In this document: positions 923-27,390 of the stretch, piece by piece
Layout: every line of letters starts with the position of its first letter
How positions within the stretch are numbered: position 1 is the stretch's first letter
The notes under the pieces: generated by a model
What the model was told of the DNA's origin: nothing
Seen by the model: the letters and a program-made list of their open reading frames with translations, nothing else
Database searches by the model: none
Made by a program: the position numbers and the translations under genes
IMG/VR virus record: IMGVR_UViG_3300006329_000005
Coordinates: 1-34,686 of that record
DNA length: 34,686 nucleotides
DNA from: a virus
Direction: 5' to 3' (one strand)

Positions 923-1622
923 GTTGACAGAAGACATAGGTGGATTAATCCTTAGTACTATTGAGGATCTACCTGATGTAGAACCATTACCAAGTAACCA
1001 TGGTATAGTTGAGAAGGATGGTCTCACCATTCGTAATAGAATGTTTAAGACACCTGAGTTAAGGAAGATTCATATAGAAGAAGCAGAGATAGGTGGGATA
1101 AAGATACTACATTGTGTATTCTTTCCTGATCCTCACTATGCTATACCTATATTTGGATGTGATATTGTATCCAATGGTAAGGTAGTGACTGCTGCTATAG
1201 TTGATGTCTCTCCTGTGCATGGTGTTGGTGAGGATTTCTATAGTGAGATAAGATCTCTTAGTAACAACTTTAGTTTTAGTGGTAAGAGAGCACTCCCACT
1301 GTGGGGTGATGAGATCTTCTCACCATACTGTAAGTTTACACGTTTGAAAGAAGAGATTGACAAAGCAAATTTTTATTGTATAGTGCTCCTATATCTTAAG
1401 GAGTATCGTGATAGAGTACTCTCTAGTGAGAGAGACACCTTCTGGGTTAATACCATGAAGAGATTGGATGACCAGATATGGTACTGCGAGAGTCAGAAGC
1501 GAAATGATAAAACTCGTGGTATACTAGAGAAGTGGTTTGACAAAGACTGGACAGATAAGTATATGAATGAGGTATTATTTGATGCACCAACTGCAAAATC
1601 TATTTCAAGTACCAGTATATAA
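915..1622 (+). CDS. pcyA: Phycocyanobilin:ferredoxin oxidoreductase PcyA
   Basis: 235-residue PcyA, which converts biliverdin to phycocyanobilin with electrons from ferredoxin. ILHCVFFPDP and PIFGCDIV match cyanobacterial PcyA, and the known catalytic residues E76, H88 and D105 of the Synechocystis enzyme correspond to E55, H66 and D83. The C-terminal QKRNDKTRGILEKWF and YMNEVLFD are also family signatures, and the length is normal. The start overlaps the end of pebS by 8 bases, so the two reductases are co-transcribed. The 3' end overlaps the next gene's start by 41 bases. Confidence 0.93.
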   Translation: MRELTEDIGGLILSTIEDLPDVEPLPSNHGIVEKDGLTIRNRMFKTPELRKIHIEEAEIGGIKILHCVFFPDPHYAIPIFGCDIVSNGKVVTAAIVDVSPVHGVGEDFYSEIRSLSNNFSFSGKRALPLWGDEIFSPYCKFTRLKEEIDKANFYCIVLLYLKEYRDRVLSSERDTFWVNTMKRLDDQIWYCESQKRNDKTRGILEKWFDKDWTDKYMNEVLFDAPTAKSISSTSI

Positions 1623-2154
1623 AGGACATTTAGAGCAGGATTTTAAAATTCCTGACCTATGGAGTGGTCTTAGTAAGAATGTATGGTCTGGTGAAAGTGG
1701 ATTCTCCACCGCACAGTGTGACCTACAACTGCATGATAGTAGTGTGGAGGTATGTGACATCATTGAGGCACTATTTCCTCATGTAATAGAGTATTGGAAT
1801 ACCTTAGGGTATGCACCTGCTCAGATAAGACCAACTGCATCATGGGCTAACTGGCATGAAGCAGGAGACCATACCTCGGAACATTCACATTGCGATGGCA
1901 CTAGACAAACTCACATAGCTTCGGTATACTATATTGAAAAGGGTGAAGGTGGAGATATCGAACTGATAAATCCACTGGATTATATCCATAGGCTAACACC
2001 ACTTGCGGGAGAGCAGGGTGATATGCTAATGTCAGAAAGTATAAAGTGCGTGAGTGGTGACTTCCTATTATTTCCAGGATGGTTACGACACCGTACACAA
2101 ATCACACAGTCACCCAGAAAGGCATTAAGTATAAATTTTAACGGTTATCTATGA
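1582..2154 (+). CDS. 2OG-Fe(II) oxygenase, cyanophage type
   Basis: Putative 2-oxoglutarate/Fe(II)-dependent oxygenase of about 190 residues. Candidate metal ligands lie in HSHCD (H101, H103, D105) and WLRHR (H170), with R179 in SPRKALSINF as the likely 2OG carboxylate ligand; the order HxD...H...R with LFPGWL before the distal histidine is typical. An upstream ATG at 1567 exists, but 1582 is preferred because TGAGG lies 9 bases upstream and the product then begins MHQLQNLFQVPVY, as in related proteins. The start lies inside pcyA. The stop overlaps the gp47 start. The substrate is unknown. Confidence 0.8.
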   Translation: MHQLQNLFQVPVYKGHLEQDFKIPDLWSGLSKNVWSGESGFSTAQCDLQLHDSSVEVCDIIEALFPHVIEYWNTLGYAPAQIRPTASWANWHEAGDHTSEHSHCDGTRQTHIASVYYIEKGEGGDIELINPLDYIHRLTPLAGEQGDMLMSESIKCVSGDFLLFPGWLRHRTQITQSPRKALSINFNGYL

Positions 2155-3179
2155 AAGTCTTATTAATAACAGACCAACACTTCGGTGTCAGAAATGACAA
2201 CGTGCACTATGTTGATAGGTATCGTAAGTTTTATACAGAAACTGTCCTTCCTATCATTGATAAGGAAGGTATAACAGAGATATTATGTCTTGGTGATACC
2301 TTTGATAGAAGAAAGGGGGTTAACTTTAACTCTCTAGAAGCAGCAAAGGACATGTGGTTTAGACCTCTAAAAGATAGGGGTGTAAAAATGACAATGTTGC
2401 TAGGTAACCATGACATCTATTTCAAAAATACTCTTCGGGTTAACGCTCCTGACCTTCTCCTTGGGGAGTTTGATAATATTGAGATCATTTATTGTCCAGG
2501 TGAGAGGCTTATAGGTGGTAAGAAGATGATGCTTGTCCCTTGGATCTGTGAAGAGAATAGGGATGCATGTTTTGAAGCAATAGCAGATACAGATGCTGAA
2601 TATTGCATGGGACACTTTGAATTGAATGGTTTTGAACCAGTTCCTGGTGTCGTCATGGAGAAAGGGGAAGACCCAAACAAACTATCTAAGTTTAAGATGG
2701 TATGCTCAGGTCATTTCCACTGTAAAAGTACTAAATCTAATGTTACTTACCTAGGTAATCCATGCCAACTCTACTGGAATGATTACGGTCACGATCGTGG
2801 GTTTCATATACTAAATACTAATACACAAAGACTTAAGTTTTATAAGAATCCTTTCGAGACATTCCATAAGATATATTACACAGGCAACAAGACAAAGATT
2901 CCTACTGGTTTAGAAGGAAAGTATGTCAAAGTTGTAGTTGAAACGAAAGGAGACCAGTTGATTTTTGACCATAAGATGCGTGAGTTGCAGGACTCTGGTC
3001 TCGCTGACCTCAAGATAATTGAGGACATGTCTTATGATACAGATGTATGGGATAATGTAGGTGATATTGAATTAGAAGACACTCTGACCCTGTTAGAGCA
3101 GTCTCTAGAGGATATGCCTAATAAGGATAATATATTTAATATACTGAAGTCATTATACATGGAAGCATCGGAGGTATGA
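2151..3179 (+). CDS. gp47: Recombination endonuclease subunit gp47 (Mre11/SbcD-like)
   Basis: 342-residue nuclease subunit of the gp46/gp47 complex (Rad50/Mre11 counterpart), which resects DNA ends for recombination-dependent replication and host DNA breakdown. The calcineurin-type phosphoesterase motifs are complete: D8-x-H10 (TDQH), GD49, GNHD with N86, H87 and D88, GH155, and GHFH with H188 and H190. Length and motif order fit T4 gp47 (339). The start is ATGA-coupled to the upstream oxygenase, and the next gene overlaps the stop. Unlike in T4, a QueG-like gene separates it from gp46. Confidence 0.97.
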   Translation: MKVLLITDQHFGVRNDNVHYVDRYRKFYTETVLPIIDKEGITEILCLGDTFDRRKGVNFNSLEAAKDMWFRPLKDRGVKMTMLLGNHDIYFKNTLRVNAPDLLLGEFDNIEIIYCPGERLIGGKKMMLVPWICEENRDACFEAIADTDAEYCMGHFELNGFEPVPGVVMEKGEDPNKLSKFKMVCSGHFHCKSTKSNVTYLGNPCQLYWNDYGHDRGFHILNTNTQRLKFYKNPFETFHKIYYTGNKTKIPTGLEGKYVKVVVETKGDQLIFDHKMRELQDSGLADLKIIEDMSYDTDVWDNVGDIELEDTLTLLEQSLEDMPNKDNIFNILKSLYMEASEV

Positions 3180-3910
3180 TCTCCCTAGATAGACTTAGAG
3201 CAGACATTAAAGAAGTAACAGATGACTATGAGGGTTTCCTCTACGAGATAGATGTAACTACCTTCGCTGAGGACAATAGATTTTCTAAACAAAAACCTAT
3301 ACCTGATAGACCACCTGAGACTCCTCCTAAGTCTGTACTCGTAATGAGTATGTTTAGCTATGTTGGTGGTGATTATTTCTATTCACATGAGATAGTCCCA
3401 CGAATATATGATCATCTCAATAAAAAATATAATGCTGAAGGTATATGGTTCCAAGATGATGGATATGTGTTTGATCGTAAGCAATATGCTATGAGGTCAG
3501 GGGTCGGTAAACTAACCAAACCCTCTATCACTTTCCATCATAAGTATGGATTGAATTGGAAGTTAGAATTACTGTTTACTAACCTTGAATTTGAGGAATC
3601 GGTGACAGTTGAAGAAAGTTTATATGATAACTGTATAGGATGTGACGCACCCTGTGAATCTAATTGTCCAGAAGGGTGTAGAATGAATTTCAAGTTGCTC
3701 GACTGGGAGAAGTGTGCTAACGTAGTTGAAGGAAGGCATATATTCATGTATCCTGAGAGAGTATGTAGAATTTGTCAGGACAGCTGTCCATATTCAGAAG
3801 AATTAAAACTTAAAATACTTGAAGACCATCCTGATTGTGGTGGTTTTATGCAACCCTTATCATACTATAAAGACTATTACTCTTTAGGCATACCCGCAGA
3901 GGACATTTAA
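3176..3910 (+). CDS. Epoxyqueuosine reductase (QueG)-like 4Fe-4S protein
   Basis: 244-residue iron-sulfur protein. CIGCDAPCESNCP (C153, C156, C160, C164), WEKCANVVE (C180) and CRICQDSCPY (C197, C200, C204) parallel QueG's two-cluster region, in which a CxxCxxCxxxCP motif is followed by RCISY and CDxCQxxCPW. RSGVGKLTK...YGLNWKLELLFTNLEF resembles the QueG segment RxGLGWxGKN...LGEILTDLEL. QueG is a cobalamin protein that makes queuosine in tRNA. This protein is much shorter (QueG is about 380) and its N-terminal half is divergent, so the substrate is unsure. It sits between gp47 and gp46 with ATGA and TAATG junctions. Confidence 0.7.
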   Translation: MISLDRLRADIKEVTDDYEGFLYEIDVTTFAEDNRFSKQKPIPDRPPETPPKSVLVMSMFSYVGGDYFYSHEIVPRIYDHLNKKYNAEGIWFQDDGYVFDRKQYAMRSGVGKLTKPSITFHHKYGLNWKLELLFTNLEFEESVTVEESLYDNCIGCDAPCESNCPEGCRMNFKLLDWEKCANVVEGRHIFMYPERVCRICQDSCPYSEELKLKILEDHPDCGGFMQPLSYYKDYYSLGIPAEDI

Positions 3911-4176
3911 TGTTTGTATTGTTAGATAAAAAAACTGGTGGAGTATATGCGGTCAGAGATGATGACCATACTGAAAGAGTTGTACAGATATTCCTTGACA
4001 AAGATGACGCATCACGCTATTATGAGATGTTGAGGGCCGATGATTATCCTAGGAAGCTATCTGTGACTGAAATAGGAGAGGAGCAGGTAAAAGAAAACTG
4101 CACCATACATGGGTATGCCTTTACTATGATTAGTCCAGATGAATTTGTAATACCTCCCCCACAAGACAGTAAATGA
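3910..4176 (+). CDS. Small conserved-looking hypothetical protein between QueG-like gene and gp46
   Basis: 88-residue soluble protein of unknown function, rich in acidic residues, with no membrane segment or cysteine motif. It begins MFVLLDKKTGGVYAVRDDD and reads like a small mixed alpha/beta domain. It is translationally coupled on both sides (TAATG with the upstream gene, ATGA with gp46), which supports its being real. No family was recognised. Confidence 0.7.
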   Translation: MFVLLDKKTGGVYAVRDDDHTERVVQIFLDKDDASRYYEMLRADDYPRKLSVTEIGEEQVKENCTIHGYAFTMISPDEFVIPPPQDSK

Positions 4177-5795
4177 TAACTTTTGAGAATATTCGTTGGA
4201 AGAATTTCCTATCTACTGGTAATACTTTCACCGAAGTGACTTTGAATGGTGCTAGATCGCACCTTATAATTGGAGCAAATGGAGCAGGGAAGTCTACGAT
4301 GTTAGATGCACTCTGCTTTGGTTTGTTCAATAAACCATTTCGTAAGATAAGTATTAGTCAGTTGGTTAATAGTATCAACGAGAAAGAATTAGTAGTAGAG
4401 ATTGAGTTTAGTATTGGAACTGTCCACTACAAAGTAAAACGAGGGAGAAAACCAAATGTATTTGAAATTTATAGAAACGGTAAACTACTTGACCAAGATG
4501 CTGCTACCAAAGATTCACAGAAGTACCTTGAACACTCAGTCCTTAAACTTAATTTCAAGAGTTTCACACAGGTCGTCATCCTTGGTTCATCCACATTTGT
4601 CCCCTTCATGCAACTTGGAGCAAGTGTCAGGAGAGAGGTTATCGAGGATATACTGGACATCCAGATCTTCTCAAGAATGAATGGAATCCTTAAGGATAAA
4701 GTAAGAGATGTAAGAGAGGATCAAATTAAAGCAGAAGGTAAACTGACTAAAGAGAAAGCAGTACTGTCATTAGAGGAACAATATTTTGAAGAGAGAAAGA
4801 AGGAGAAGGGTAAGAGGATAGGTGAGATTGATGCACGAATGTATGAGTGCCATGACGAGATAGAAATACTAAGTAAGAAGGCCAAAAACCTAGGTGAAGT
4901 TAGAGCCAAGTATGATGAGATGAAAGACATGAGAGTCAAGATATCTCACAACCTAGACAAGGCCAAGAGTGATTTGAAATTGTATTGGGAGAATGATACA
5001 TGTCCTACATGTAATCAAGAGATACAGGATAAGACACAGATGATATCAAATGCTCAGGAAAGAGAGAAGAAGTTTATAGAAGGTCTTAAAGTCATCACTG
5101 ATGCCCTTAATCGAGGTCACAAGCAAGTAAAACAGTTACAGGGGTATGCTGATGAGATATCTCAAATTAACTACGAGCTAAAGTCATTACAGCAAGAGCA
5201 GAATATACTATTACAGCAAGAGCAGGACTATTCCAAGAAGGATTTGGATAAGTATAGAGATTCAGTTGATAAACTGGCACAAAAGGTAGCGACAATCAAC
5301 GAAGAGTCTGATAATCTTAAGGTGGTAGGTAGTTTACTAAGGGATACTGGGATCAAATCTAAGATCATCAGTAAGTTCATCCCCTTGATCAATCAAAAGA
5401 TTAATAAATACCTGCAATCAATGGATTTCTTTGTCAACTTTACTATTGATGAAGAGTTCAAAGAAGTTATCAAGAGCAGATACAGAGATGAGTTCTCCTA
5501 TGCTTCCTTTTCAGAGGGTGAGAAGCAAAAGATTGACTTATCTGTCTTGTTTACATGGAGAGAGATAGCAAAGATGAAAAACTCTGCTGCTACTAACCTC
5601 CTGATACTGGATGAAGTATTTGATTCTTCCTTGGATGACTCTAGTACAGATGAATTACTCAAGATTCTGAAGGCACTAGACAAAACTGTGAATTTATTCG
5701 TCATTTCACATAAAGGGGAGTTACTTCTTGATAAATTCGATAAGACCCTCAAGTTCGAGAAGACCAATGATTTTTCCAAACTGGCAGCATCATAG
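4173..5795 (+). CDS. gp46: Recombination endonuclease subunit gp46 (Rad50/SbcC-like ATPase)
   Basis: 540-residue SMC-like ATPase partner of gp47. Walker A is GANGAGKS (residues 34-41). Two long coiled-coil arms flank a zinc-hook CPTC (277-280). The C-terminal part has the ABC signature FSEGEKQKIDLS, Walker B LLILDEVFDSSLD and the H-loop VISHK. Length is slightly below T4 gp46 (560). The gene ends with adjacent TAG and TAA codons (5793-5798); the same frame then stays open for 34 more codons of hydrophilic sequence before another TAA (see findings). Confidence 0.97.
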   Translation: MITFENIRWKNFLSTGNTFTEVTLNGARSHLIIGANGAGKSTMLDALCFGLFNKPFRKISISQLVNSINEKELVVEIEFSIGTVHYKVKRGRKPNVFEIYRNGKLLDQDAATKDSQKYLEHSVLKLNFKSFTQVVILGSSTFVPFMQLGASVRREVIEDILDIQIFSRMNGILKDKVRDVREDQIKAEGKLTKEKAVLSLEEQYFEERKKEKGKRIGEIDARMYECHDEIEILSKKAKNLGEVRAKYDEMKDMRVKISHNLDKAKSDLKLYWENDTCPTCNQEIQDKTQMISNAQEREKKFIEGLKVITDALNRGHKQVKQLQGYADEISQINYELKSLQQEQNILLQQEQDYSKKDLDKYRDSVDKLAQKVATINEESDNLKVVGSLLRDTGIKSKIISKFIPLINQKINKYLQSMDFFVNFTIDEEFKEVIKSRYRDEFSYASFSEGEKQKIDLSVLFTWREIAKMKNSAATNLLILDEVFDSSLDDSSTDELLKILKALDKTVNLFVISHKGELLLDKFDKTLKFEKTNDFSKLAAS

Positions 5796-5879
5796 TAAGA
5801 AGGAGGCAAAGCGTCATCTCAAACCGCAAGCACTCCGACAGGCACGAAAAAGAACGAGACAGTTGAAAAAGTGTCTACT

Positions 5880-5902
5880 AAACCCTCCCAAGCGGAGGGT
5901 TT
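5880..5902 (+). terminator. Hairpin after gp46, terminator-like
   Basis: A perfect 9-bp stem (AAACCCTCC / GGAGGGTTT) closes a 5-base loop 85 bases after the gp46 stop. The A...T flanks and G/C core look like an intrinsic terminator usable on either strand, but the T-run is only three bases before CC, so termination may be partial. It separates the gp46 transcript from the peptidase/AAA+ module. Confidence 0.5.
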
Positions 5903-5907
5903 CCTAT

Positions 5908-5913
5908 TATAAT
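5908..5913 (+). promoter_or_regulatory. Possible -10 element ahead of the peptidase/VWA gene
   Basis: A perfect TATAAT lies just after the hairpin and 22 bases before the ATG at 5936. No good -35 hexamer sits 16-18 bases upstream, since that position falls in the hairpin, so this is only a candidate. The ribosome site AGGAAA precedes the ATG. Confidence 0.3.
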
Positions 5914-5935
5914 GTGAATATACACAGGAAATTAG

Positions 5936-11887: not shown

Positions 11888-12090
11888 TTGCTAAGTGGGT
11901 CAAGGACATTCCCAACTGGGAGAAAGAATATTTACAGTGGAACTCTGACTTATCACGTCGTCAGAAGGAAATACTAGAGGGTGATGACATCAAATCACAT
12001 GAAGGTATGTTGTATGGTGAGATGTATTCTCAATGGAAGAGAAATAAGATACTCTATGCAGCAGATATGTCGGAGGGTGAGTGTGATTAA
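11884..12090 (+). CDS. Small hypothetical protein, first full gene of the gp44-gp62 insert
   Basis: 68-residue charged protein with several tryptophans (MIAKWVKDIPNWEKEYLQW...), mainly helical, no membrane segment and no recognised family. Both ends are coupled to neighbours (ATGA upstream, TAATG downstream). Function unknown. Confidence 0.65.
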   Translation: MIAKWVKDIPNWEKEYLQWNSDLSRRQKEILEGDDIKSHEGMLYGEMYSQWKRNKILYAADMSEGECD

Positions 12091-12698
12091 TGAAAAAAGT
12101 AGATTTGTATCCTGTAGAATGCTACGAATTTGAATCCAACCATAAGTGGCAATGGATTGAAAAGATACGTGAACTAGACTTGAAGGAGACAGGTACAGGT
12201 ACTCTTAATACAGGTCCAGAATTACATAAAAATGAAAAGTTTAAACCGATTGTAGATTTTATTAATGAATGTTTGGGAAAAATTAGGTTACACTATAACT
12301 ATGATTGTAGTGGTTTCAAGATTACTTCTATGTGGGCTAACTACTACAGACCTGGCACAGACCAACATGCACACAGGCATGCCAATTCATACTATAGCGG
12401 GGTATTATACCTCAGTGGGGGTGCACCCACAGTCTTTTATGACCCATTAGCACAGAGGTATCAAGCACAGTTTGATTTATTCACACTCCCTAAGTCAACC
12501 GTAGATGGGTTTGACCAGAATGGACCGAGGTTTGAAAAGTCAGAGGCCGAAGCAGGTAAAATGATAGTATTTCCTAGTTGGTTGGTACATAGTACTGCTA
12601 TAGCACAAGAGGATAGATATAGTATAGCCTTTAATGCTATGCCATATGGTAAGATTAATAGCAAGTGGGATTCTGTATTGAATATTGAGGTATTATGA
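12090..12698 (+). CDS. 2OG-Fe(II) oxygenase, tandem copy 1
   Basis: 202-residue putative 2OG/Fe(II) oxygenase of the type often annotated TIGR02466. Motif order: YYRPGTDQHAHRHANSYYSG with H95 and H97 as candidate ligands, then GAPTVFYDP, FPSWLVH (H167) and R176 in RYSIAFNAMPYGKIN. It is the first of three clearly related adjacent copies sharing the FPxWLxH and SIAFNxxPxGxIN-type endings. Substrate unknown. TAATG coupling upstream, ATGA coupling downstream. Confidence 0.82.
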   Translation: MKKVDLYPVECYEFESNHKWQWIEKIRELDLKETGTGTLNTGPELHKNEKFKPIVDFINECLGKIRLHYNYDCSGFKITSMWANYYRPGTDQHAHRHANSYYSGVLYLSGGAPTVFYDPLAQRYQAQFDLFTLPKSTVDGFDQNGPRFEKSEAEAGKMIVFPSWLVHSTAIAQEDRYSIAFNAMPYGKINSKWDSVLNIEVL

Positions 12699-13357
12699 GA
12701 CAGAAATATGACGAGTTACCTTTGTTCCCTGTAAGGACATTTACTTTTATAGCACCTGAGGATCTACTGGAAGATACCTTAGAGAAGTGTAAGAAGTTAC
12801 AGTATAAAGAATATAATCCTCCTGGTGGGGTAGGTACTAGCGATGACATTCATATTAATGATGATTTTAAAGGTATCATTAATTGGTTTCAAGAGTGTGT
12901 GGACACTCTACATGCAGATGAAGGGTGGTATACTGACCGTGTAGCAGTTTGTAAGGCATGGGTTAATAGATCCGATAAAGAGAGTTCACATTGTCACGAT
13001 GCTCATAGACATCCTATGTCATTGATGAGTGGTATATTCTACCTTACTAATACACCTTATGCTCCTACTATATTTTTGGATCCCATTGATAAAAGAGAGT
13101 GGGATGCATTCTCAGTAGATGGTACACGTGATGAGTTTCATAGGCAGTATGTCACACCAAAGAGAGGTGGATTAATTGTCTTCCCTAGTTGGTTGATACA
13201 TGCATCTATGCCTAACAACTCGTTGGATGATAGGTATACTATTGCATTCAATACATTTCCTATGGGTGATATCAATAAGGGTGGTTGGGACCGTCCTATG
13301 GTACAAATTGATAACCCATTAGGTCCATTAGATTTAGGGACATATGGTAAAGGTTAA
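12695..13357 (+). CDS. 2OG-Fe(II) oxygenase, tandem copy 2
   Basis: 220-residue paralogue of its neighbours. Candidate metal site HRHPMS (H104, H106) and H169 in FPSWLIH; R180 in DDRYTIAFNTFPMGDIN for 2OG. The N-terminus (ELPLFPVRTF) has the LFPxxxxxF opening common to this family. It overlaps copy 1 by 4 bases and copy 3 by 14 bases. Divergence among the three copies is high outside the motifs, so the duplication is old or the copies were acquired separately. Confidence 0.82.
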   Translation: MRQKYDELPLFPVRTFTFIAPEDLLEDTLEKCKKLQYKEYNPPGGVGTSDDIHINDDFKGIINWFQECVDTLHADEGWYTDRVAVCKAWVNRSDKESSHCHDAHRHPMSLMSGIFYLTNTPYAPTIFLDPIDKREWDAFSVDGTRDEFHRQYVTPKRGGLIVFPSWLIHASMPNNSLDDRYTIAFNTFPMGDINKGGWDRPMVQIDNPLGPLDLGTYGKG

Positions 13358-13985
13358 CGAAAGACATCTATTTCCAGTCGTCGTCAGGGAATACCATAAA
13401 CCTGAGGATGATTTACATGAACATCTAATAGAATACTTTAAGACATACCCTGCACAACCTTCTAATTTTCCAGAAGGTGTGTTGACAAGCAGACCAGACC
13501 TCCATAAGGATGATAATATACATGTCAAAAGACTAATAGAATTTTTTGATGGTTGTCTACATGAGTATCGTAATCAGTATCAGTTATACTGTGACAAGTT
13601 AGACATATCTCTTTGTTGGTTTAACCATGCACCTGCTAAGAGTGGGTATGGACACCCATTACATAGACATCCGATGTCATATTTGAGTGCAGTATATTAT
13701 CTGACAGATGGTGCACCAACTATATTTGATGACCCATGCACACCGAGGGTTTACGATACGCTCGATGTGTGGTATCATAATAAGATGGAAGCTGAACTTG
13801 GTATCAATGAGAAGATTGATGCTGAACCAGGTAAACTCATACTCTTCCCTGCATGGTTGAGACACTTCTCAGGTAGACAGATGGAGGATTATGACAGATG
13901 GACAATATCATTTAATGCATTCCCTACTGGCCGAATAAATACTGGACCGTGGGAGATGCCACAACTTGAGGTAAGTATAAAATGA
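13344..13985 (+). CDS. 2OG-Fe(II) oxygenase, tandem copy 3
   Basis: 213-residue third copy. HRHPMSYLSAVYYL (H107, H109), FPAWLRH (H174) and R185 in RWTISFNAFPTGRIN give the full motif set; GAPTIFDDP matches the corresponding segment of copies 1 and 2. N-terminal ERHLFPVVVREY is the family opening. Its stop overlaps the start of the Dam-like methylase (ATGA), so oxygenase and methylase are likely translated together. Confidence 0.82.
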   Translation: MVKVNERHLFPVVVREYHKPEDDLHEHLIEYFKTYPAQPSNFPEGVLTSRPDLHKDDNIHVKRLIEFFDGCLHEYRNQYQLYCDKLDISLCWFNHAPAKSGYGHPLHRHPMSYLSAVYYLTDGAPTIFDDPCTPRVYDTLDVWYHNKMEAELGINEKIDAEPGKLILFPAWLRHFSGRQMEDYDRWTISFNAFPTGRINTGPWEMPQLEVSIK

Positions 13986-14821
13986 AGACTAGAAAAACAC
14001 CACTAAGATATCCAGGCGGTAAGTCTAGGGTTGCTAAAGATTTCATCCCTAGATTTCCTAGAGATATGACAGAGTATAGAGAACCATTCGTCGGTGGTGG
14101 CTCAGTTGCTTTATTGTTTACACAGATGTATCCTGACATCCCAGTGTGGGTAAATGATAAGTATGAATATCTTTATAACTTTTGGATTCAATTACAAAAG
14201 AATGGACAGGAGTTATCAGATACTTTAGTAGAGATTAAGAGAGAGCATAGCACAGAAGATAAAGCAAAAGAATTATTTAAGGGTGCTAAGGATAAGATTA
14301 AGAAGGAACCCGATGACTTTGAGAGAGCATGTCTCTTCTGGATACTTAACAAGTGTTCTTACTCAGGACTAACAGAGAATAGTTCCTTCAGTGCTACTGC
14401 ATCTAGACAAAACTTCACCACTCGTGGTGCTAGTTATCTCTATGAGATATCTCAACTGATAAAGAATTGGAGAATCACTAACCATGATTACTCTGAAGTA
14501 ATGCATGCACCAGGTGACAATGTATTCATGTTCTTGGATCCACCTTATAAGATAGGGACATATCTATACGGTAGTAATGCTGAGTTACATAAGTCATTCA
14601 AACATGAAGAGTTTATACAACACTGTAGAGATTGTAAACATGATTGGTTTGTAACATATAATGACGATGACTATCTTAAGTCAGAGTATGAAGGTTATCA
14701 TCAAGAATTGTTTCAAATTACTTACGGTATGAAGCATAGGCCAGATAATAAACAGAAGAAGGAGTTGTTAGTATGCAACTACGAGATAAACAAGACACCA
14801 TTAGAGGCATTGTATGCATGA
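13982..14821 (+). CDS. dam: DNA adenine methyltransferase (Dam/D12 class)
   Basis: 279-residue N6-adenine methyltransferase of the D12 class. LRYPGGKS and EPFVGGGSVALLF (motif I, 36-41 FVGGGS) bind AdoMet, DPPY (186-189) is catalytic motif IV, and NKCSYSGLTENSSFS matches the conserved middle segment. Length fits Dam (about 260-280). It probably methylates phage DNA, protecting it from restriction; target sequence not deducible. It lies between the oxygenases and gp62 with short overlaps on both sides. Confidence 0.92.
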   Translation: MKTRKTPLRYPGGKSRVAKDFIPRFPRDMTEYREPFVGGGSVALLFTQMYPDIPVWVNDKYEYLYNFWIQLQKNGQELSDTLVEIKREHSTEDKAKELFKGAKDKIKKEPDDFERACLFWILNKCSYSGLTENSSFSATASRQNFTTRGASYLYEISQLIKNWRITNHDYSEVMHAPGDNVFMFLDPPYKIGTYLYGSNAELHKSFKHEEFIQHCRDCKHDWFVTYNDDDYLKSEYEGYHQELFQITYGMKHRPDNKQKKELLVCNYEINKTPLEALYA

Positions 14822-16318: not shown

Positions 16319-16816
16319 ATGAAGATATATAAATCCAATGTTGTTTTAGATAACGTTGGAGTGATGACTTCCATACTAGATGATGTAACGTATGATGGTG
16401 ACCTCACCATGTCATACGATAGATATAATATCTTCGGATTAACCTCTCCAACTCAGGTCTTTTACGACCTCTTCAATGAGTTGAGAGGTTTTGTTTATGA
16501 CTATACAGATGCTGATCAATTGTGGATGCAAGCATGGTTAAATAGACATATGCCTGAGGATGTGTTACCATGGCATGACCATGCGTGGCCTATTCATGGC
16601 TATATAAGTATAAGACCCTTCAATACTACAACTGTATTTGAAGATTTTGAAATACAAAATGAAGTTGGTAATGTTTATATCGGACCAGGTTATATGAAGC
16701 ATAAGGTTGTGGTTAATGAACCATTTACTACACCTCGTCTTACTATAGGGTTTGATTTACTACATGAGCCATCTAGATACTCTGCTAATTTAGGATTAAT
16801 ACCTTTTCCAAAATGA
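16319..16816 (+). CDS. 2OG-Fe(II) oxygenase-like protein
   Basis: 165-residue protein with the reduced oxygenase pattern WHDHAWPIHGYISI (H86, D87, H88), GYMKHKVVV (H128) and R140 in PRLTIGFDL. It is smaller and more divergent than the tandem trio, so assignment rests on motif order alone. It is ATGA-coupled to the next oxygenase-like gene. Substrate unknown. Confidence 0.65.
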   Translation: MKIYKSNVVLDNVGVMTSILDDVTYDGDLTMSYDRYNIFGLTSPTQVFYDLFNELRGFVYDYTDADQLWMQAWLNRHMPEDVLPWHDHAWPIHGYISIRPFNTTTVFEDFEIQNEVGNVYIGPGYMKHKVVVNEPFTTPRLTIGFDLLHEPSRYSANLGLIPFPK

Positions 16817-17382
16817 GTTGTCCATTTGAAACACTAGAGAATCCATTGACCTCTGGGTACAGAGAGCTAAAGGATTTTATATTATCTGAACAGTTTCCTT
16901 GGTTTTATAACAACCAAGCAACACCATATGCTAAAGCATTAGGGTTTGAGCAAGAGCATAAGGACTTATCCTTCTACTCTCATGCAGTCCTACATGGACC
17001 TGCTCATCCTGCTACTATGAATAGTGAGCATAGGAGATATCCTAAGTCTAATTCACAGTATCTTGATGCTTTCGATGACGTTATTAATGACATCATGTTA
17101 GCTAATAATATGAATGTCCATTGTATATACAGGATAAATGCTAACGCAGTGCATCCAGTAGAAGGTAATGTCTTAACTGTTCCTCATACAGATCATGAGT
17201 TCCCTCATAAGAATTTGTTAATATACTTGACAGATGCAGGGGGTAGGACTTATTGTGATAAGGATGGTATGGACCATTACTTTGACCCTCTTGAAGATGA
17301 TATTGTAACATTTGAAGGTCTACATTATATGCAACCTCCTAAATCTAAGAGGAGAGTAGTAATAGTAGTAACGTATCTCTAA
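16813..17382 (+). CDS. 2OG-Fe(II) oxygenase-like protein
   Basis: 189-residue protein with VPHTDHEFPHKNLLIYLTDAGG (H125-x-D127), DIVTFEGLHYM (H171) and the SKRRVVIVVTYL ending that supplies a basic 2OG ligand. This is the classic HxD...H...R/K order. The N-terminal half (YSHAVLHGPAHP) resembles other cyanophage oxygenase-fold proteins. ATGA-coupled upstream and TAATG-coupled downstream. Confidence 0.7.
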   Translation: MSCPFETLENPLTSGYRELKDFILSEQFPWFYNNQATPYAKALGFEQEHKDLSFYSHAVLHGPAHPATMNSEHRRYPKSNSQYLDAFDDVINDIMLANNMNVHCIYRINANAVHPVEGNVLTVPHTDHEFPHKNLLIYLTDAGGRTYCDKDGMDHYFDPLEDDIVTFEGLHYMQPPKSKRRVVIVVTYL

Positions 17383-20558: not shown

Positions 20559-20584
20559 CCAATTATCCTAAGTAGAAGTACTTC

Positions 20585-20592: not shown

Positions 20593-20657
20593 CAAATAAG
20601 TATTGTAACAAATGTACTATTTCGGATACCCCTACTGGTAGTGGCCAAGTTATGTGG

Positions 20658-20665: not shown

Positions 20666-20668
20666 GAT

Positions 20669-20689: not shown

Positions 20690-20721
20690 AATTTAACACT
20701 CGCTTTTAAAGGAGGACTATT

Positions 20722-21153: not shown

Positions 21154-21332
21154 AGACAGAAGATGTCGTTATGCACCCCTTATGGATAGGGCCTGTGCTG
21201 ATACTGGGTATGATGGTCATGATACAGACCCTTCATACCCTCACCCACTGGAGGATGGAGATAGATGCTGATGCATACTGTCGAAACAATGCTGAGTGGG
21301 TTGAGAAAAACACAGTGTCAGATGATTACTAA
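21150..21332 (+). CDS. Small membrane protein after hsp20
   Basis: 60-residue protein with one hydrophobic segment (WIGPVLILGMMVMIQTL, about 12-28), then a histidine/tryptophan turn and a polar tail. ATGA-coupled to hsp20. No family recognised. Confidence 0.6.
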   Translation: MKTEDVVMHPLWIGPVLILGMMVMIQTLHTLTHWRMEIDADAYCRNNAEWVEKNTVSDDY

Positions 21333-21351
21333 CATATATAATATACAACTG

Positions 21352-21376
21352 AAGAGACCCCAAGGGTCTCTTTTTT
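21352..21376 (+). terminator. Intrinsic terminator ending the hsp20 unit
   Basis: AAGAGACCC pairs with GGGTCTCTT across a 3-base CAA loop, with a run of six T that directly touches the next ATG (21377). Strong intrinsic terminator; its T-run occupies the place where a ribosome site would normally be. Confidence 0.85.
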
Positions 21377-21967
21377 ATGGGCAAGACAATGCAAAAATGG
21401 TTAGGAATTAGTTTAGGTGCGGTATTTGGACTGTGCCATATAGGTATGATCGGGTTACTAGCAACTAGGCAATCCAATAAGGTACCATATATCAATCCTC
21501 CAGTAGGAGATTATACTTCGTATGTTATCTCAGCAGATGAAGAAGGATATAAGATCAGTTACACTGCTAACGATCCCAAGACAATGCACATCACTAAGGA
21601 CATCAAAGAGAAGGGTGGTTTCTTAGGATTAGCAACAAATAAAACTCAAGTTGTTGAGGAGTATGTCATGGATGGTCAGACCAATCAGGGTGGACCTGTA
21701 TCTAACAAGAGATCATGGCAAGATCCATCTACTATAGTTAAAGGTGGTGAAGTATCTGATAAGACTGTCGCCTGCATCGAAGCAGTTGGTGCTGCAAAAG
21801 GAACAGGTAGATTGGTTGGTACTAGTGTTGGTGCTAGTGCTGCCCCTGCTCTGTCTGGTATCCCCTTCATTGGTTGGGTAGCTGCAGGTTGGGTAGCAAT
21901 GTTTGGCGGTGAGCAAGGTGCTAACATCGGTGGTAACATGGCAGAAGATCTAAACAAGAACTGCTAA
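21377..21967 (+). CDS. Hypothetical membrane-anchored protein
   Basis: 196-residue protein with an N-terminal hydrophobic helix (about 8-29), a polar beta-rich middle and a Gly/Ala-rich C-terminal part (about 145-185) that may form membrane-associated glycine-zipper helices. The ATG at 21377 is immediately after a terminator T-run; ATG 21389 (MQKWLGISLG) is an alternative start that leaves a little more leader. Function unknown. Confidence 0.65.
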   Translation: MGKTMQKWLGISLGAVFGLCHIGMIGLLATRQSNKVPYINPPVGDYTSYVISADEEGYKISYTANDPKTMHITKDIKEKGGFLGLATNKTQVVEEYVMDGQTNQGGPVSNKRSWQDPSTIVKGGEVSDKTVACIEAVGAAKGTGRLVGTSVGASAAPALSGIPFIGWVAAGWVAMFGGEQGANIGGNMAEDLNKNC

Positions 21968-22567
21968 ATGGATGACTTCATAGGGGTGTTTCCTAACGCT
22001 TTCACAGATGATTTCTGTGGGAGGGTTATGGATCACTTTGATTATTGCAGGTCTAACACTACCTATGTCCGTCCTAGGACAGCAGAGGGAGTAGACCCAC
22101 TAGATAAGAGTGACCATTCAATGTATCTAAATGACATTGATGAGATTAAGGAGTTGAGATTTCTCCATAGAGATTTCTCACAAGAATTCTTTGAGGGTAG
22201 TGGTAGATGTTTGCATCAATATTATAGTAAGTATTCAATACTTAATCGTATTAATACTGATCATGGACCTCGTAGTGGGGTGTTTGATCTTAAGATTCAG
22301 AAGACAGATCCAGGTGAGGGTTATCATCAGTGGCATTGTGAAAACTTTGATAGGCATTCACAGTCAAGTAGGTACCTTGCATACACAGTATACTTGAATA
22401 CTGTAGAGGAAGGAGGGGAGACCGAGTTTCTATATCAGAAACGTCGTATCAAACCAGAGGCAGGTACTCTCGTTGTATTCCCATCAGGGTGGACACATGT
22501 CCATAGGGGTAACCCACCATTGTCAGGATCAAAATACATAATCACAACGTGGGAGGAATTTGTATGA
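21968..22567 (+). CDS. Prolyl 4-hydroxylase-like 2OG-Fe(II) oxygenase
   Basis: 199-residue P4Hc-type oxygenase. YHQWHCEN holds the HxE pair (H123, E125), [17 protein letters not shown] is the typical central strand, and FPSGWTHVHRG (H177 or H179) with K189 (SKYIITTW) completes the site. It closely parallels the copy at 26824, more than the tandem trio. It starts one base after the previous stop, and its stop overlaps the next ATG. Substrate unknown. Confidence 0.85.
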   Translation: MDDFIGVFPNAFTDDFCGRVMDHFDYCRSNTTYVRPRTAEGVDPLDKSDHSMYLNDIDEIKELRFLHRDFSQEFFEGSGRCLHQYYSKYSILNRINTDHGPRSGVFDLKIQKTDPGEGYHQWHCENFDRHSQSSRYLAYTVYLNTVEEGGETEFLYQKRRIKPEAGTLVVFPSGWTHVHRGNPPLSGSKYIITTWEEFV

Positions 22568-22806
22568 ACATGTATGTTAATATGTGCACAGGCACAGTAC
22601 CAAAGAAGGACACCTTGACAATTGATATACCTCCAGAGTATACTGATGAGTTCAACCAGATGGTACACATCCTAGCTGAAGAAAAGAATATCACTGCTCG
22701 ACGTGCATTCGTTGACCTAGTGAGAAACACATTTGATAACCTAATGGAGAGAGACTATGAGCGTAAAGGTCGTAAGAATGCAAAACGGAGAGGACGTAGT
22801 AGCTGA
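22564..22806 (+). CDS. Small basic hypothetical protein
   Basis: 80-residue protein. The central PPEYTDEFNQMVHILAEEKNITARRAFVDLVRN reads like a small helical DNA-binding or regulatory fold, and the tail is Arg/Lys-rich (ERKGRKNAKRRGRSS). The start at 22564 (ATGA overlap, GGAGGAATTT upstream) is preferred over the ATG at 22549. It overlaps the next gene by 50 bases. Function unknown. Confidence 0.6.
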   Translation: MNMYVNMCTGTVPKKDTLTIDIPPEYTDEFNQMVHILAEEKNITARRAFVDLVRNTFDNLMERDYERKGRKNAKRRGRSS

Positions 22807-23152
22807 CGTAAAGGAGATCCGTCCTGAGTCAGGTAAGTCTGCCATTGCATACGAATTCCTTGATGCTTTTGTTGTGCAGATCCTTAGATCAACTGAGGAT
22901 ATGTTTAATGAAGAGGTTGAGGTGCCTATGGATGAGTTGGGTGACATCAAATTGGAATTTTTTCCTTGGTCACCGTTGTCAACAGGCCGAAATATTGTTA
23001 CACTGTATTCAGTAGTGGCGATTGCTGATCCACATTCCAATGTCGTAGAGGGATGGAAGACTGCTATAGAGAAATACAAAGCGTTAAAGAGAGACGAAGA
23101 TGCTAAAGTTGATTATTCTGAAACACCACCCGACAACCTATTTGCTGGGTAA
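22757..23152 (+). CDS. Conserved-looking cyanophage hypothetical protein
   Basis: 131-residue acidic soluble protein starting SVKVVRMQNGEDVVADVKEI, a beta-hairpin opening seen in small cyanophage proteins near gp43, possibly an Sm-like barrel. It overlaps the upstream gene by 50 bases, so the Arg-rich tail of one gene and the N-terminus of the other share DNA. Function unknown. Confidence 0.65.
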   Translation: MSVKVVRMQNGEDVVADVKEIRPESGKSAIAYEFLDAFVVQILRSTEDMFNEEVEVPMDELGDIKLEFFPWSPLSTGRNIVTLYSVVAIADPHSNVVEGWKTAIEKYKALKRDEDAKVDYSETPPDNLFAG

Positions 23153-23162
23153 GATTACAGAG

Positions 23163-23348
23163 ATGGATGAGGAGCCGAGTCTTCTTATTGAGAATTGTTA
23201 CTATGTGAATCCAGAGGGGACACTTGAAGAGTATCCCTTACATAGCAGTCAACGTGACATCTTCTTGACATATGAGGATGTTATGACTATAATGGATCCA
23301 TCCTTAACGATAACCAAGTTGTACGAAGAAGCAGTTAAAAGTGAGTGA
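23163..23348 (+). CDS. Small hypothetical protein before gp43
   Basis: 61-residue acidic protein (MDEEPSLLIENCYYVNPEG...). ATG 23163 is chosen over an in-frame ATG at 23100, which would lie inside the upstream gene. Its end overlaps the GTG start of gp43 by 8 bases. No family recognised. Confidence 0.55.
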   Translation: MDEEPSLLIENCYYVNPEGTLEEYPLHSSQRDIFLTYEDVMTIMDPSLTITKLYEEAVKSE

Positions 23349-25830
23349 TTTCTATACTAACCTTTGTTTAGTGGGTGATGACATTCTATACCGTGGGTAT
23401 GAGGATGGCGAACCTGTGCAGTATAGAGAGAAGTCAAAACCAGTAATGTATCTGGTACCTGACGCTCAGTCTAAACCTTCCAAGTATAAAACTTTGGATG
23501 GTAGGAAAGCATACCCAAAGCAATTCGATGGTGCTAGAGAAGCACGTGACTTCCTCAGACAGTATGAGAATGCTGCTGGTTTAGAAGTGCATGGGTATGA
23601 AAGATTCCTCTATCAACATATCGCTCAGAAGTTTACTTCTGATGTTGATTATGATATGACCAAGATGAAAATCTATACGATTGACATTGAGGTCGCATGT
23701 GAAAATGGATTCCCTGATGTAGCAGCGTCTGCTGAGGAGATGCTATGCATTACTATAAAGGATTTCAATACAAAGAAGATCATCACGTGGGGAACACGTG
23801 AGTATCAATCGAAGCACGAGTATCGTGTCTTCTGGACTGAAGCAGAGATGCTTGAGGACTTTGTACAATGGTGGGTGCAGAATACTCCTGACATTATTAC
23901 AGGATGGAACTGTAACCTCTATGATATACCTTATATCTGTCGTAGAGTAGAGAGGATATTGGGTGAGAAATGGAAGAAGTCTCTGTCACCTTGGAAGAGA
24001 GTATATGACAGGGAGATTGTCATTCAAGGACGTACTAACATTGCTTATGATATCACTGGTGTTAACATCCTTGACTATCTTGACCTCTATAAGAAGTTTA
24101 CTTACACCAACCAAGAGTCATACCGACTAGATCATATTGCTATGGTAGAGTTGGATGATGCTAAGTTAGACCACTCACAGTATGAAAACTTTAAAGATTT
24201 CTATACTAATGACTGGGATCGTTTTGTAGAATACAACATACATGACGTTGATCTTGTTGACCGTCTGGAAGATAAGATGAAACTTGTTGAGTTGTGTGTT
24301 GCTATGGCATACGATGCTAAGGTTAACTTTACTGATGTGTATTCACAGGTGCGAGTCTGGGACACACTGATATATAATGACTTAAGTAAGATCAATGTGG
24401 TAGTACCACCGAAAAGTAAGACAAAGAAAGATGACAAATACGCAGGAGCATATGTCAAGGAACCGAAACCTGGCATCTATGATTGGGTGGTCAGTTTTGA
24501 CCTTAACAGTCTGTACCCTCACCTTATCATGCAGTACAACATCTCCCCCGAAACGCTTGCCGACAGGAGACACCCCACTGCCACAGTTGAAGGACTGCTC
24601 AGTCAGCGAGTACGGATCGATGGAGATTTTGCAGTGTGTGCCAACGGAGCACAATACCGCAAAGACATCCACGGATTCCTACCTCAGATGATGCAACGCA
24701 TCTATGATGAAAGGACAATATATAAGAAGAAGATGTTGGAGGCAAAACAGCAGTATGAAAAAGGACCAACCGAGCAACTCCGACGAGACATTGCTAAATT
24801 TAATAATGTCCAAATGGCAAGAAAAATCCAACTTAACTCTGCCTACGGTGCAATCGGTAACCAATACTTCAGGTATTACAATCTTGCGAACGCTGAAGCA
24901 ATCACTCTCTCAGGACAAGTCGCAATCAGATGGATCGAAAACAAAGTAAACAATTATTTAAACAAAGTATTACAAACTGACGGAGAAGATTATGTTATTG
25001 CTAGTGACACTGATTCTATTTACCTTAATCTTGGTCCTTTGGTACAAGCTGTATTCCCCAGTGGAGAGAAGGACGATCAGAGTACACTTAGTTTCCTTAA
25101 AAAGGTGTGCGATGTGGAACTTGATCGCTATATTGAGAGTGCTTATGAAGAGATGGCAACCTATGTAAATGCCTATGCTCAGAAGATGGTGATGAAGAGA
25201 GAAAACATTGCCAACAAGGGTATATGGACAGCAAAGAAGAGATATATTTTAAACGTATGGAATAGTGAGGGTGTGCAGTATGAGAAACCTAAGTTAAAGA
25301 TGATGGGTATAGAGGCAGTAAAGTCTTCTACACCTATGCCATGTCGTACTGCTATTAAGGAAGCACTTAATGTTATTATGACAGGTAGTGAGAGTGACAC
25401 TCAGAAATATATCAAGGACTTCCGAGAGAAGTTTGAATCTATGTCACCAGAAGAGGTGGCATTCCCTCGTGGTTGTAATAATATAGCAAAGAATACATCT
25501 AGTGCTACAATATATGGTAAGGGATGTCCCATGCATGTCAGGGGTGCTCTGTTATATAACTTCTACATTAAGAAGAGGAAGTTACATCATAAGTATCCTG
25601 TCATACAGGAGGGTGAGAAGATAAAATACTTACATCTTCGTACACCTAACAAGATCAATGAGAATATTATCTCATTCTTCCAGACTCTTCCAAAAGAATT
25701 TGGGCTTGACGAATCAATTGATTATGATTTACAATTTGAGAAGAGTTTCCTAGCACCCCTTAAAGCCATCTTAGATACAATAGGATGGGATGCAGAGAAA
25801 AAGAATACATTAGACGCACTTTGGTCATGA
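23341..25830 (+). CDS. gp43: DNA polymerase gp43 (family B)
   Basis: 829-residue replicative polymerase with proofreading. Exonuclease motif I is YTIDIE (D115, E117), motif II lies in [11 protein letters not shown] and motif III in YNIHDVDLV. Polymerase motifs are [14 protein letters not shown] (about 385-398), [13 protein letters not shown] and ASDTDSIYL (near 555). It is shorter than T4 gp43 (898), as is usual in cyanophages. The start is GTG. The segment around 24520-24700 has unusually high G+C and C-ending codons. It overlaps uvsX by 4 bases. Confidence 0.98.
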
Positions 25831-26834
25831 GTTTTTTAAAAGATATAGTAAAAGAGATAGACAATGAATACGCTGCTGTTGTTAGTGATGGTGTTGCTGC
25901 TGGTGACACTAGTGGTTATATCGACACAGGTTCGTACATCTTTAATGGACTTGTCTCAGGTTCAATCCACAAAGGGGTTCCAGGAAACAAAATCACTGCT
26001 ATTGCAGGTGAATCAAGCACAGGCAAAACGTTTTTCTGTCTTGGTATCGTACGTCATTTCCTCGAATCTAATCCTGATGGTGGGGTTATTTATTTTGAGT
26101 CTGAAAGTGCGATAAGTAAGGACTTGATTGAGGATCGAGACATCGATTCCAGTCGTATGATACTGGTACCAGTCAATACTGTCCAAGAGTTTAGGACACA
26201 AGCAATCAAAGTGCTTGACAAATATATGTCCGAGAAGAATCAACCACCTATGATGATGGTACTTGATTCACTTGGTATGCTATCCACTTCTAAGGAGATG
26301 GAAGACAGTGAAGCAGGTAAAGAGACAAGAGATATGACACGTGCTCAGGTAGTCAAAGCTATCTTCCGTGTGTTGACTTTGAAACTTGGTAAAGCAAATG
26401 TTCCTTTAATAGTTACCAACCATACATATGATGTGGTGGGTGCATATATGCCTACCAAAGAGATGGGTGGAGGATCAGGACTTAAGTATGCTGCATCCAA
26501 TATCATCTACCTTAGCAAGTCTAAGGAGAAGGATGGTAAGGAAGTAGTGGGTAACATTATTAAAGCTAAACTTGCTAAGTCAAGGTTGGCGAAGGAGAAT
26601 TCTCAAGTGGCGATTCGATTATATTATGACAACCGTGGGTTGGATCGTTACTATGGTCTGTTAGAATTGGGAGAAAAGTATGGAGTCTTCGAGCGAAAGG
26701 GTAATAGAATTGTCATTGGAGATGATTCTGTATATCCATCGGTTGTATATAAAGACCCCGAAAAATACATCACCCCCGAAATTTTACAAGCACTAGATGA
26801 GTGTGCAGAGAAAGAGTTTTCCTATGGATCTTAA
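25827..26834 (+). CDS. uvsX: UvsX RecA-like recombinase
   Basis: 335-residue strand-exchange protein. Walker A is GESSTGKT (61-68), Walker [10 protein letters not shown], with the L2-type glycine-rich loop around [13 protein letters not shown]. It drives recombination-dependent replication with gp46/47, gp41 and gp43. ATG 25827 (ATGA with the gp43 stop) is preferred over an upstream ATG at 25785 inside gp43. Its 3' end overlaps the next gene by 11 bases. Confidence 0.97.
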
Positions 26835-27390
26835 GGATTATATCGTCACCTATGATGACGTACTTGACGAGAATGTATGCAAGAATGCCATTGAGTTTTT
26901 CAATGAGGATCCAGGCATCGTCACCAGATTTGACGCTAAGATGTGTGGTTTCTCATCTATTAACTTAACTGAGCAGTGTGAGGTCAAGAAGAATACCAAG
27001 TGGGAACCTGTTAATCAACAGATCATACTAGCAATCAAAGAATGTGGTGAGAGATACATCAAAGACGTTGATTGTGAAAGGTATTGGCCCCAAAAGAATG
27101 CACTTGAGCAAGTCAAGATCAATAAGTATCAACATAAGACAGAGGATAGGTTTGATCGTCACATTGACGTTGGAGATCATAACTCTGCAAGGAGATTCCT
27201 TACCTATGTCATCTACTTGAATACTGTTGAAGAAGGTGGAGCAACATATTTCAATGACATAGATGTTGAAATTACTGCAAAGTGTGGTAGAGTAGTGATG
27301 TTCCCTTCTACGTGGACATACCCACATACCTACTGTGCACCTAAAGGTGAAGACAAGTATGCAGTATCCACCTACTTACATTATACATGA
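26824..27390 (+). CDS. Prolyl 4-hydroxylase-like 2OG-Fe(II) oxygenase
   Basis: 188-residue P4Hc-type oxygenase between uvsX and gp41. RFDRHIDVG holds HxD (H113, D115), [16 protein letters not shown] is the central strand, and [24 protein letters not shown] gives H168 and K178. YLNTVEEGG is identical in the copy at 21968, so these two are the closest pair of the eight oxygenases. ATG 26824 is chosen over ATG 26797, which would add residues inside uvsX. The stop overlaps gp41. Confidence 0.87.

What the first reader, a model, noticed from the sequence alone, without database searches (positions are those of the whole stretch)
1582..27390. Eight 2OG-Fe(II) oxygenase-type genes woven between replication genes
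Copies at 1582, 12090, 12695, 13344, 16319, 16813, 21968 and 26824 keep the metal and 2OG ligand pattern. At least two subfamilies are seen (HRHP/FPxWLxH type; P4Hc type with YLNTVEEGG). All are translationally coupled to replication or neighbouring genes. Such a number suggests a large hydroxylation programme on DNA, nucleotides or proteins, or use of host 2OG, the cyanobacterial nitrogen signal.
Basis: partly seen in the sequence, partly recalled or inferred. Interest (0 to 1): 0.75.

Follow-up and report, generated by a model that had tools for sequence, protein, structure and literature searches.

The report
Cyanophage 2OG-oxygenase-like gene family
This stretch of a marine cyanobacterial virus carries eight related oxygenase-like genes, which is ordinary for such viruses, but five of the eight have an unusual histidine pattern at the metal site, so it is open whether they work like the textbook enzymes they are named after.

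Summary
The window is a 34.7 kb fragment of a T4-like cyanophage. All eight genes are real and belong to the 2OG-Fe(II) oxygenase fold family. That is known for cyanophages: nine named genomes carry 10-24 each by my profiles, T4 none by two Pfam families, and papers from 2010-2023 report 1-5, 10 and 24 per genome.

Five of eight copies (1567, 12090, 12695, 13344, 16319) lack the H-x-D/E...H metal triad and have H-x-H...H. The trait marks a clade: 60 of 128 such proteins in the nine named phages, and 108 of 111 bacterial rows. In human prolyl 4-hydroxylase the same Asp-to-His change abolished activity. Whether this half of the family uses 2OG at all is open and testable.

Three copies (16813, 21968, 26797) are canonical. 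Relatives of 16813 are often labelled "DNA endonuclease V"; its model has the 2OG fold, so that label looks wrong. The three tandem copies between gp44 and dam look duplicated in place. Substrates are unknown; protein hydroxylation is my best guess, weakly held.

The parts
1567..2154 (+). 2OG-oxygenase-like gene, PF13759 type, H-x-H...H, Arg shifted by two residues; between two bilin-reductase genes and gp47 (start may be 1582)
   Evidence: PF13759 42 bits; alignment; HxH..H with RxA in 49 of 51 relatives, 2 gapped
12090..12698 (+). 2OG-oxygenase-like gene, PF13759 type, HRH...H...R; first of tandem three between gp44 and dam
   Evidence: PF13759 53.4 bits; motif; tree
12695..13357 (+). 2OG-oxygenase-like gene, PF13759 type, HRH...H...R; second of tandem three
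   Evidence: PF13759 65 bits; AF2 pLDDT 92.5; PDB 2rg4 Z 18.1
13344..13985 (+). 2OG-oxygenase-like gene, PF13759 type, HRH...H...R; third of tandem three, overlaps dam start
   Evidence: PF13759 50.3 bits; motif; tree
16319..16816 (+). 2OG-oxygenase-like gene, HDH...H...R, below Pfam cut-off
   Evidence: phrog_2696 5.6e-45, phrog_81 4.7e-7; motif HHHR
16813..17382 (+). 2OG-oxygenase-like gene with canonical HTD...H...R; relatives often labelled 'DNA endonuclease V' in cyanophage records
   Evidence: phrog_274 1.2e-28; H125, D127, H171, R181 invariant in the 41 rows aligned; AF2 pLDDT 92.6; PDB 6n1f Z 16.1
21968..22567 (+). P4Hc-type 2OG oxygenase gene, HCE...H...K
   Evidence: PF13640 54.5 bits; nearest PDB by sequence 3itq, 5hv0, 5c5t; absent at the same place in G001
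26797..27390 (+). P4Hc-type 2OG oxygenase gene, HID...H...K, in the conserved uvsX-gp41 slot (start may be 26824)
   Evidence: PF13640 48.8 bits; same slot in 8 of 9 named phages; one clade of 10 rows, support 98
13982..14821 (+). dam-like adenine DNA methylase directly downstream of the tandem array (context)
   Evidence: PF02086 104 bits
10881..11816 (+). gp44 clamp loader upstream of the tandem array (context)
   Evidence: PF21328 Gp44_lid, PF00004

Best explanation
The window holds eight members of the expanded 2OG-oxygenase-fold family of T4-like cyanophages, in three groups: five PF13759-like proteins with H-x-H...H...R, two P4Hc-type with H-x-D/E...H...K, one phrog_274-type with H-x-D...H...R. 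Several sit in long-lived slots of the replication module (uvsX-gp41, gp44-dam, upstream of gp47) and are probably made with the replication proteins. Shown by sequence: homology, motif classes, slot orthology, and predicted fold for two copies. Inferred: the three H-x-D/E copies bind Fe(II) and 2OG and hydroxylate a protein or peptide of host or phage by the ordinary prolyl-hydroxylase-type mechanism. Inferred with less confidence: the five H-x-H copies bind a metal with three histidines, keep an Arg-anchored cosubstrate pocket, and oxidise a protein side chain; whether the cosubstrate is 2OG is open.
For: Profiles and controls. Motif classes; profiles seeded from 12695 and from 21968 agree on the window copies. 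Clade structure with motif columns left out. H104, H106, H169, R180 of copy 12695 invariant in 56 aligned viral rows (three of them window copies, the rest chosen as close profile hits, which favours the same motif). H-x-H...H in 80 of 80 rows near 3BVC and 28 of 31 rows of a wider bacterial sample. Folds; after 2rg4 and 3bvc the 12695 model is nearest to a P. putida prolyl hydroxylase (Z 16.6, and 16.1 for the complex with EF-Tu), OGFOD1 (16.1) and PHD2 (up to 15.9). Bacterial PF13759 domain fused to TPR arrays in 5 of 5 long proteins scanned, the kind of domain that holds peptide substrates in collagen P4H (recalled). Slots. Seven copies are shared with G001: six at 94.7-99.5% protein identity, dN/dS 0.03-0.50 from few changes, the seventh (26797) at 61.9%, dN/dS 0.11.
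Against: No catalysis, metal or substrate is shown. Direct profile-profile comparison of the H-x-H and phrog_274 alignments is weak (probability 1.2%, E 0.044) and places the histidines differently, so the equivalence of H-x-H with H-x-D rests on the iterated profiles and motif spacing. The lean to proteins is weak: the small-molecule epimerase SnoN ties with the protein hydroxylases for the 12695 model (Z 16.0) and stands right after the family in Foldseek's list; AlkB, a DNA repair enzyme, matches the 16813 model at Z 12.0 beside PHD2 at 12.7. Folds do not tell substrate. My confidence was lowered from 0.55 to 0.5 on rechecking these ties.
Confidence: 0.5

Rival explanations
1. Nucleic-acid or nucleotide oxygenases: the copies oxidise bases or repair alkylation in phage DNA, in step with dam and the replisome.
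For: Positions inside the replication module and next to dam; PMC3037559 passages cite a DNA-repair suggestion; AlkB-type chains among the matches of 16813.
Against: No AlkB or TET/JBP family among the Pfam matches of the eight at E up to 0.1; 33 of 47 gp44-gp62 intervals with dam have no 2OG gene, association p 0.17; the rows nearest to the 12695 model outside its family are mainly protein hydroxylases; the region is tightly packed, so neighbours prove little.
Confidence: 0.2
2. The H-x-H group does not use 2OG: it is a three-histidine iron (or other metal) enzyme of the 2OG fold, with its own chemistry.
For: Carboxylate ligand replaced by His throughout the clade; D414H in human P4H had no detectable activity, and a 3-His site is known in cysteine dioxygenase, which does not use 2OG (PMC2767507, abstract and passages).
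Against: The 2OG-type Arg/Lys is kept in 76 of 78 H-x-H rows (the other two are the shifted 1567 copy and its G001 twin), which points to a dicarboxylate cosubstrate.
Confidence: 0.3
3. 2OG sink or sensor: the proteins mainly change host 2OG level and so NtcA-driven transcription (Sullivan et al. 2010).
For: Published proposal; many copies per genome.
Against: NtcA boxes at chance in this window; diverse, separately conserved slots and clades suit many substrates better than one bulk sink; 2OG use unproven for about half the copies.
Confidence: 0.1

Closest known systems
2OG-Fe(II) oxygenase genes of T4-like cyanophages (Sullivan 2010 T4-GC 104, 240, 412, 611; S-SCSM1 with 24; S-CREM1 with 10)
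   Same: Same host group, same Pfam families (PF13640, PF13759), many per genome, same slots in named phages
   Different: Nothing categorical; this fragment has a three-copy array in the gp44-dam slot, also seen in other IMG/VR contigs
PF13759 proteins with solved structures 2RG4 and 3BVC (Rhodobacteraceae, uncharacterised)
   Same: Fold (Z 18.1 and 17.9) and the H-x-H...H...R pattern
   Different: About 20% identity; cellular; function unknown there too
Prolyl 4-hydroxylases (3itq, 5hv0; PBCV-1 5c5t, virus name recalled)
   Same: 21968 matches by sequence at about 3e-5 with H-x-E...H...K
   Different: Substrate not known; collagen-like proteins were not looked for
T4 DenV (pyrimidine dimer glycosylase, PF03013)
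   Same: Only the name, carried by 12 of the 25 listed cyanophage records with a relative of 16813
   Different: No PF03013 match in the two proteins tested, no BLASTP alignment of 16813 with T4 DenV, 2OG-type fold in the model

Membership tests
2OG-Fe(II) oxygenase superfamily | Double-stranded beta-helix fold | tested here: met
   Two of eight modelled: 12695 and 16813; six not modelled
2OG-Fe(II) oxygenase superfamily | HX(D/E)...H metal triad (as worded in PMC4543633, passage): copies 16813, 21968, 26797 | tested here: met
2OG-Fe(II) oxygenase superfamily | HX(D/E)...H metal triad: copies 1567, 12090, 12695, 13344, 16319 | tested here: not met
   H-x-H...H instead
2OG-Fe(II) oxygenase superfamily | Arg/Lys after the distal His that binds 2OG | tested here: met
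   All eight by alignment; in 1567 two residues earlier
2OG-Fe(II) oxygenase superfamily | 2OG turnover with Fe(II) | not testable with these tools
   Needs purified enzyme
PF13759 (2OG-FeII_Oxy_5) | Score over curated cut-off 27: 1567, 12090, 12695, 13344 | tested here: met
   42, 53.4, 65, 50.3 bits
PF13759 (2OG-FeII_Oxy_5) | Score over curated cut-off 27: 16319 | tested here: not met
   15.8 bits; linked by phrog_81 and profiles only
TIGR02466 (NCBIfam) | Score over curated cut-off 62.5 | tested here: not met
   Best 58 bits, 12695
PF13640 (P4Hc-type) | Score over curated cut-off 27: 21968, 26797 | tested here: met
   54.5 and 48.8 bits
Prolyl 4-hydroxylase | Hydroxylates proline in a protein | not testable with these tools
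   Needs enzyme assay
T4 DenV | PF03013 domain in 16813 and in P-SSM7 'denV' | tested here: not met
   Absent in 16813 and P-SSM7 'denV'; present in T4 DenV; other relatives not scanned
AlkB DNA repair | AlkB-type fold and substrate lid | tested here: inconclusive
   AlkB chains at Z about 12 for 16813, tied with PHD2

The most novel reading that the evidence does not exclude
About half of the cyanophage '2OG oxygenases', and the PF13759 family in bacteria, are a separate enzyme class: 2OG-fold proteins in which one ancestral change put a histidine in place of the carboxylate metal ligand, giving a three-histidine metal site that has been kept ever since. They either run 2OG chemistry on a ligand set that is dead in human prolyl 4-hydroxylase, or use another metal or cosubstrate, and they are the largest single clade of this family in the phages compared.
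Probability: 0.45. Interest if true: 0.6.

Novelty: new member of a known kind. Interest (0 to 1): 0.35.

Why it matters
The gene family is present many times over in marine cyanophages and no substrate is known from the papers I saw. The H-x-H trait turns a vague label into a sharp test: one purified protein, one metal analysis and one 2OG assay would tell whether about half of these genes (60 of 128 in nine named phages) carry the right cofactor in their name. The 'endonuclease V' label of the 16813 family in cyanophage records should be corrected if the model holds.

Tried and rejected
Special coupling to replication genes: 13 of 13 junctions against 21 of 26, p 0.15; rejected as a distinguishing feature. 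Link with dam: of 80 gp44 loci fetched (the best 80 of 583), 26 had no closed gp44-gp62 interval and were dropped; of the 54 left, 14 of 47 with dam hold a 2OG gene (13 between gp44 and dam, one only after dam) and 0 of 7 without dam do, p 0.17; not supported. NtcA boxes GTAN8TAC: 14 against 10.4 expected, 14 of 100 shuffles as high; not supported. Loss of the Arg in copy 1567: first read as lost; 49 of 51 relatives show it moved by two residues, 2 are gapped; rejected. Halogenase-like reading: SyrB2 2fct matches profile A5 at E 0.01 over the C-terminal part only; too weak. Direct link of A5 and A7 by hhalign: probability 1.2%, a result against my reading of one aligned site. Sequence search of 16813, 16319 and profile A7 against PDB: no relevant match. 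Bacterial gene neighbours of PF13759, one Roseovarius locus only: ORF list read by eye, no clue. Promoter-like sites in 10800-17500 are below the shuffled mean, terminator-like sites 4 against 2.9. Papers on a three-histidine site in PF13759, TIGR02466 or 2RG4/3BVC: in searches of the held library no listed title or abstract start was on it; searches list only 12 of 2,079, 10 of 537 and 15 of 19 papers; subscription papers and Pfam's own pages were not seen, so the trait may well be noted elsewhere.
Full report
What the window is. It is a 34,686-base virus record classed as linear. Genes and order (gp47, gp46, CobS, gp45, gp44, dam, gp62, regA, hsp20, gp43, uvsX, gp41, mazG) match cyanophages of the Kyanoviridae; the top-ranked named records are P-RSM6 and P-SSM7 at about 76% identity over 9% of the first 25 kb. 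A 199 kb IMG/VR record, G001, is a close relative: 97.6% nucleotide identity over 275-12103, 93.6% over 12088-21348, 82.6% over 22766-29405.

The eight genes. All eight are ORFs at the stated places. Four pass the PF13759 cut-off, two the PF13640 cut-off, 16319 is below cut-off and 16813 has no Pfam family; PHROGs place the last two in phrog_2696 and phrog_274. Profiles grown from each copy, over 2,316 ORFs of 100 residues or more from the window and ten genomes, find together 156 proteins, eight of them in the window, with no hit in reversed ORFs. Identities among the eight are low: 31-37% among the tandem three, 40% over 77 residues between the two P4Hc copies, 21-29% (or only short or no alignments) for the others.

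It is ordinary for the group. By these profiles the per-genome counts are P-SSM2 24, G001 20, P-RSM6 19, S-WAM1 17, S-SZBM1 13, P-TIM40 13, Syn9 12, and S-H38, P-SSM7 and P-RSM4 10 each. By Pfam, 15 of 16 records searched have PF13759 and 15 of 16 have PF13640; T4 has neither. In print: 14 of 16 genomes, 1-5 each in the table (PMC3037559, passages); 24 in S-SCSM1 (PMC9602691, passages); 10 in S-CREM1 (PMC9964418, passages); the gene is listed for 76 of 153 cyanophage genomes (PMC10452541, passages). The link to 2OG as nitrogen signal is also from PMC3037559.

The metal site. In the profile seeded from 12695, 149 proteins align: 78 have H-x-H, 70 have H-x-D/E, one is degenerate; in the nine named phages 60 of 128 are H-x-H. 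A profile seeded from the P4Hc copy 21968 gives the same split for the window copies. With the motif columns left out, a maximum-likelihood tree of 148 rows (quick search) puts 77 of the 78 H-x-H rows and the degenerate row on one branch (SH-aLRT 98); two changes are needed against a shuffled mean of 49 (window and G001 copies are near-duplicates, so rows are not independent, and the one outlier is a long branch). In 56 aligned viral rows H104, H106, H169 and R180 of copy 12695 are invariant; 53 of these were picked as close profile hits out of 176, which favours the same motif. In bacteria, 80 of 80 rows near 3BVC read H-x-H...H...R. Of 31 rows from 30 loci of a 150-genome sample (21 of 150 genomes have the family; 35 matches), 27 read H-x-H...H...R, one is H-x-H...H cut before the Arg, and three read H-x-D. 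One protein (L248, L328) is in both sets. So the trait belongs to the family, not to this phage. Textbook 2OG oxygenases are described by HX(D/E)...H (PMC4543633, passage). Asp-to-His at this place in human prolyl 4-hydroxylase gave no detectable activity (PMC2767507, abstract and passages). That the three histidines bind a metal here is inferred; no coordinates were available, and a direct profile comparison with the phrog_274 family was weak.

Folds. The 12695 model (pLDDT 92.5, 56 rows) is nearest to 2rg4 (Z 18.1, rmsd 2.9, 175 aligned) and 3bvc (17.9, 3.5, 178), then, tied, the P. putida prolyl hydroxylase 4j25 (16.6), OGFOD1 (16.1), the small-molecule epimerase SnoN (16.0) and PHD2 (up to 15.9). 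The 16813 model (pLDDT 92.6, 41 rows) is nearest to the 2OG-Fe(II) oxygenase 6n1f (Z 16.1, rmsd 2.4, 161 aligned). Of 36 phage records with a relative of 16813, 25 are listed and 12 of these call it 'DNA endonuclease V'. T4 DenV carries PF03013; 16813 and the P-SSM7 'denV' do not, and 16813 does not align with T4 DenV. The label is probably wrong.

Slots and history. A 2OG gene lies between uvsX and gp41 in 8 of 9 named phages, not in P-SSM2, and these form one clade with the window and G001 copies (10 rows). Between gp44 and dam there is a 2OG gene in 7 of 9, not in Syn9 or P-SSM7; in P-RSM4 and P-SSM2 it is of the 16813 kind. The H-x-H copies of this slot, including all three of the window and both of P-TIM40, form one 12-row branch (support 94), with 12695 paired to one P-TIM40 copy (96) and 13344 to the other (89). 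This fits tandem duplication in place, older than the split from P-TIM40. IMG/VR contigs show arrays of one, two and three. From a gp44 anchor, 14 of 54 closed gp44-gp62 intervals hold one or more. The 1567 kind lies directly before gp47 in 48 of 51 loci, with a bilin reductase upstream in 25 of 51; some contigs end there. Copy 21968 with its upstream neighbour is absent from the same place in G001, so that one is a recent gain or loss.

How it may work. The genes are packed with replication genes, so they are probably expressed with them; this is inference. The three canonical copies most likely run the usual 2OG reaction. Protein substrates are favoured, weakly, by the fold ranking and by TPR arrays in five of five long bacterial PF13759 proteins scanned (five of the eight loci listed). 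No substrate is shown. For the H-x-H copies the kept Arg argues for a 2OG-like cosubstrate, the lost carboxylate argues against ordinary catalysis.

Verdict. The finding is real but ordinary in kind; the ligand claim is wrong for five of eight; the H-x-H clade is the part worth a bench test.

Noticed in passing
window 29647-29838 +: manA RNA (RF01745), 178 bits, upstream of the gene at 29883.
   Followed up: no
window 281-922 and 915-1622: Two tandem ferredoxin-dependent bilin reductase genes (PF05996) before the 1567 copy; a bilin reductase stands before this 2OG gene in 25 of 51 IMG/VR loci.
   Followed up: partly
window 16813-17382; P-SSM7 151842, P-SSM2 138386, P-RSM4 136062: Cyanophage 'denV / DNA endonuclease V' (phrog_274) looks like a 2OG-fold protein, not T4 DenV.
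   Followed up: yes
window 26797-27390: This copy is only 61.9% identical in protein to its G001 counterpart while its neighbours uvsX and gp41 are 88.5% and 91.7%.
   Followed up: no
window about 21349-22765: Stretch replaced relative to G001, and identity drops from 94-98% left of it to 83% right of it; G+C rises to 0.44 at 18-22 kb. Recombination or a chimeric assembly.
   Followed up: partly
G001 85602-86249: A paralogue inside the H-x-H clade with a degenerate motif (HVFL), perhaps a pseudo-enzyme.
   Followed up: no
P-SSM7 136184-136756 (L005 16185-16757): Gene called ferrochelatase in the dam-gp62 slot (phrog_2954/3531); the C-terminal part of the phrog_3531 profile also matches the P4Hc copies of the window.
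   Followed up: no
window 18662-20558, minus strand: Three leftward genes of phrogs of unknown function (848, 650, 564) inside an otherwise rightward module.
   Followed up: no
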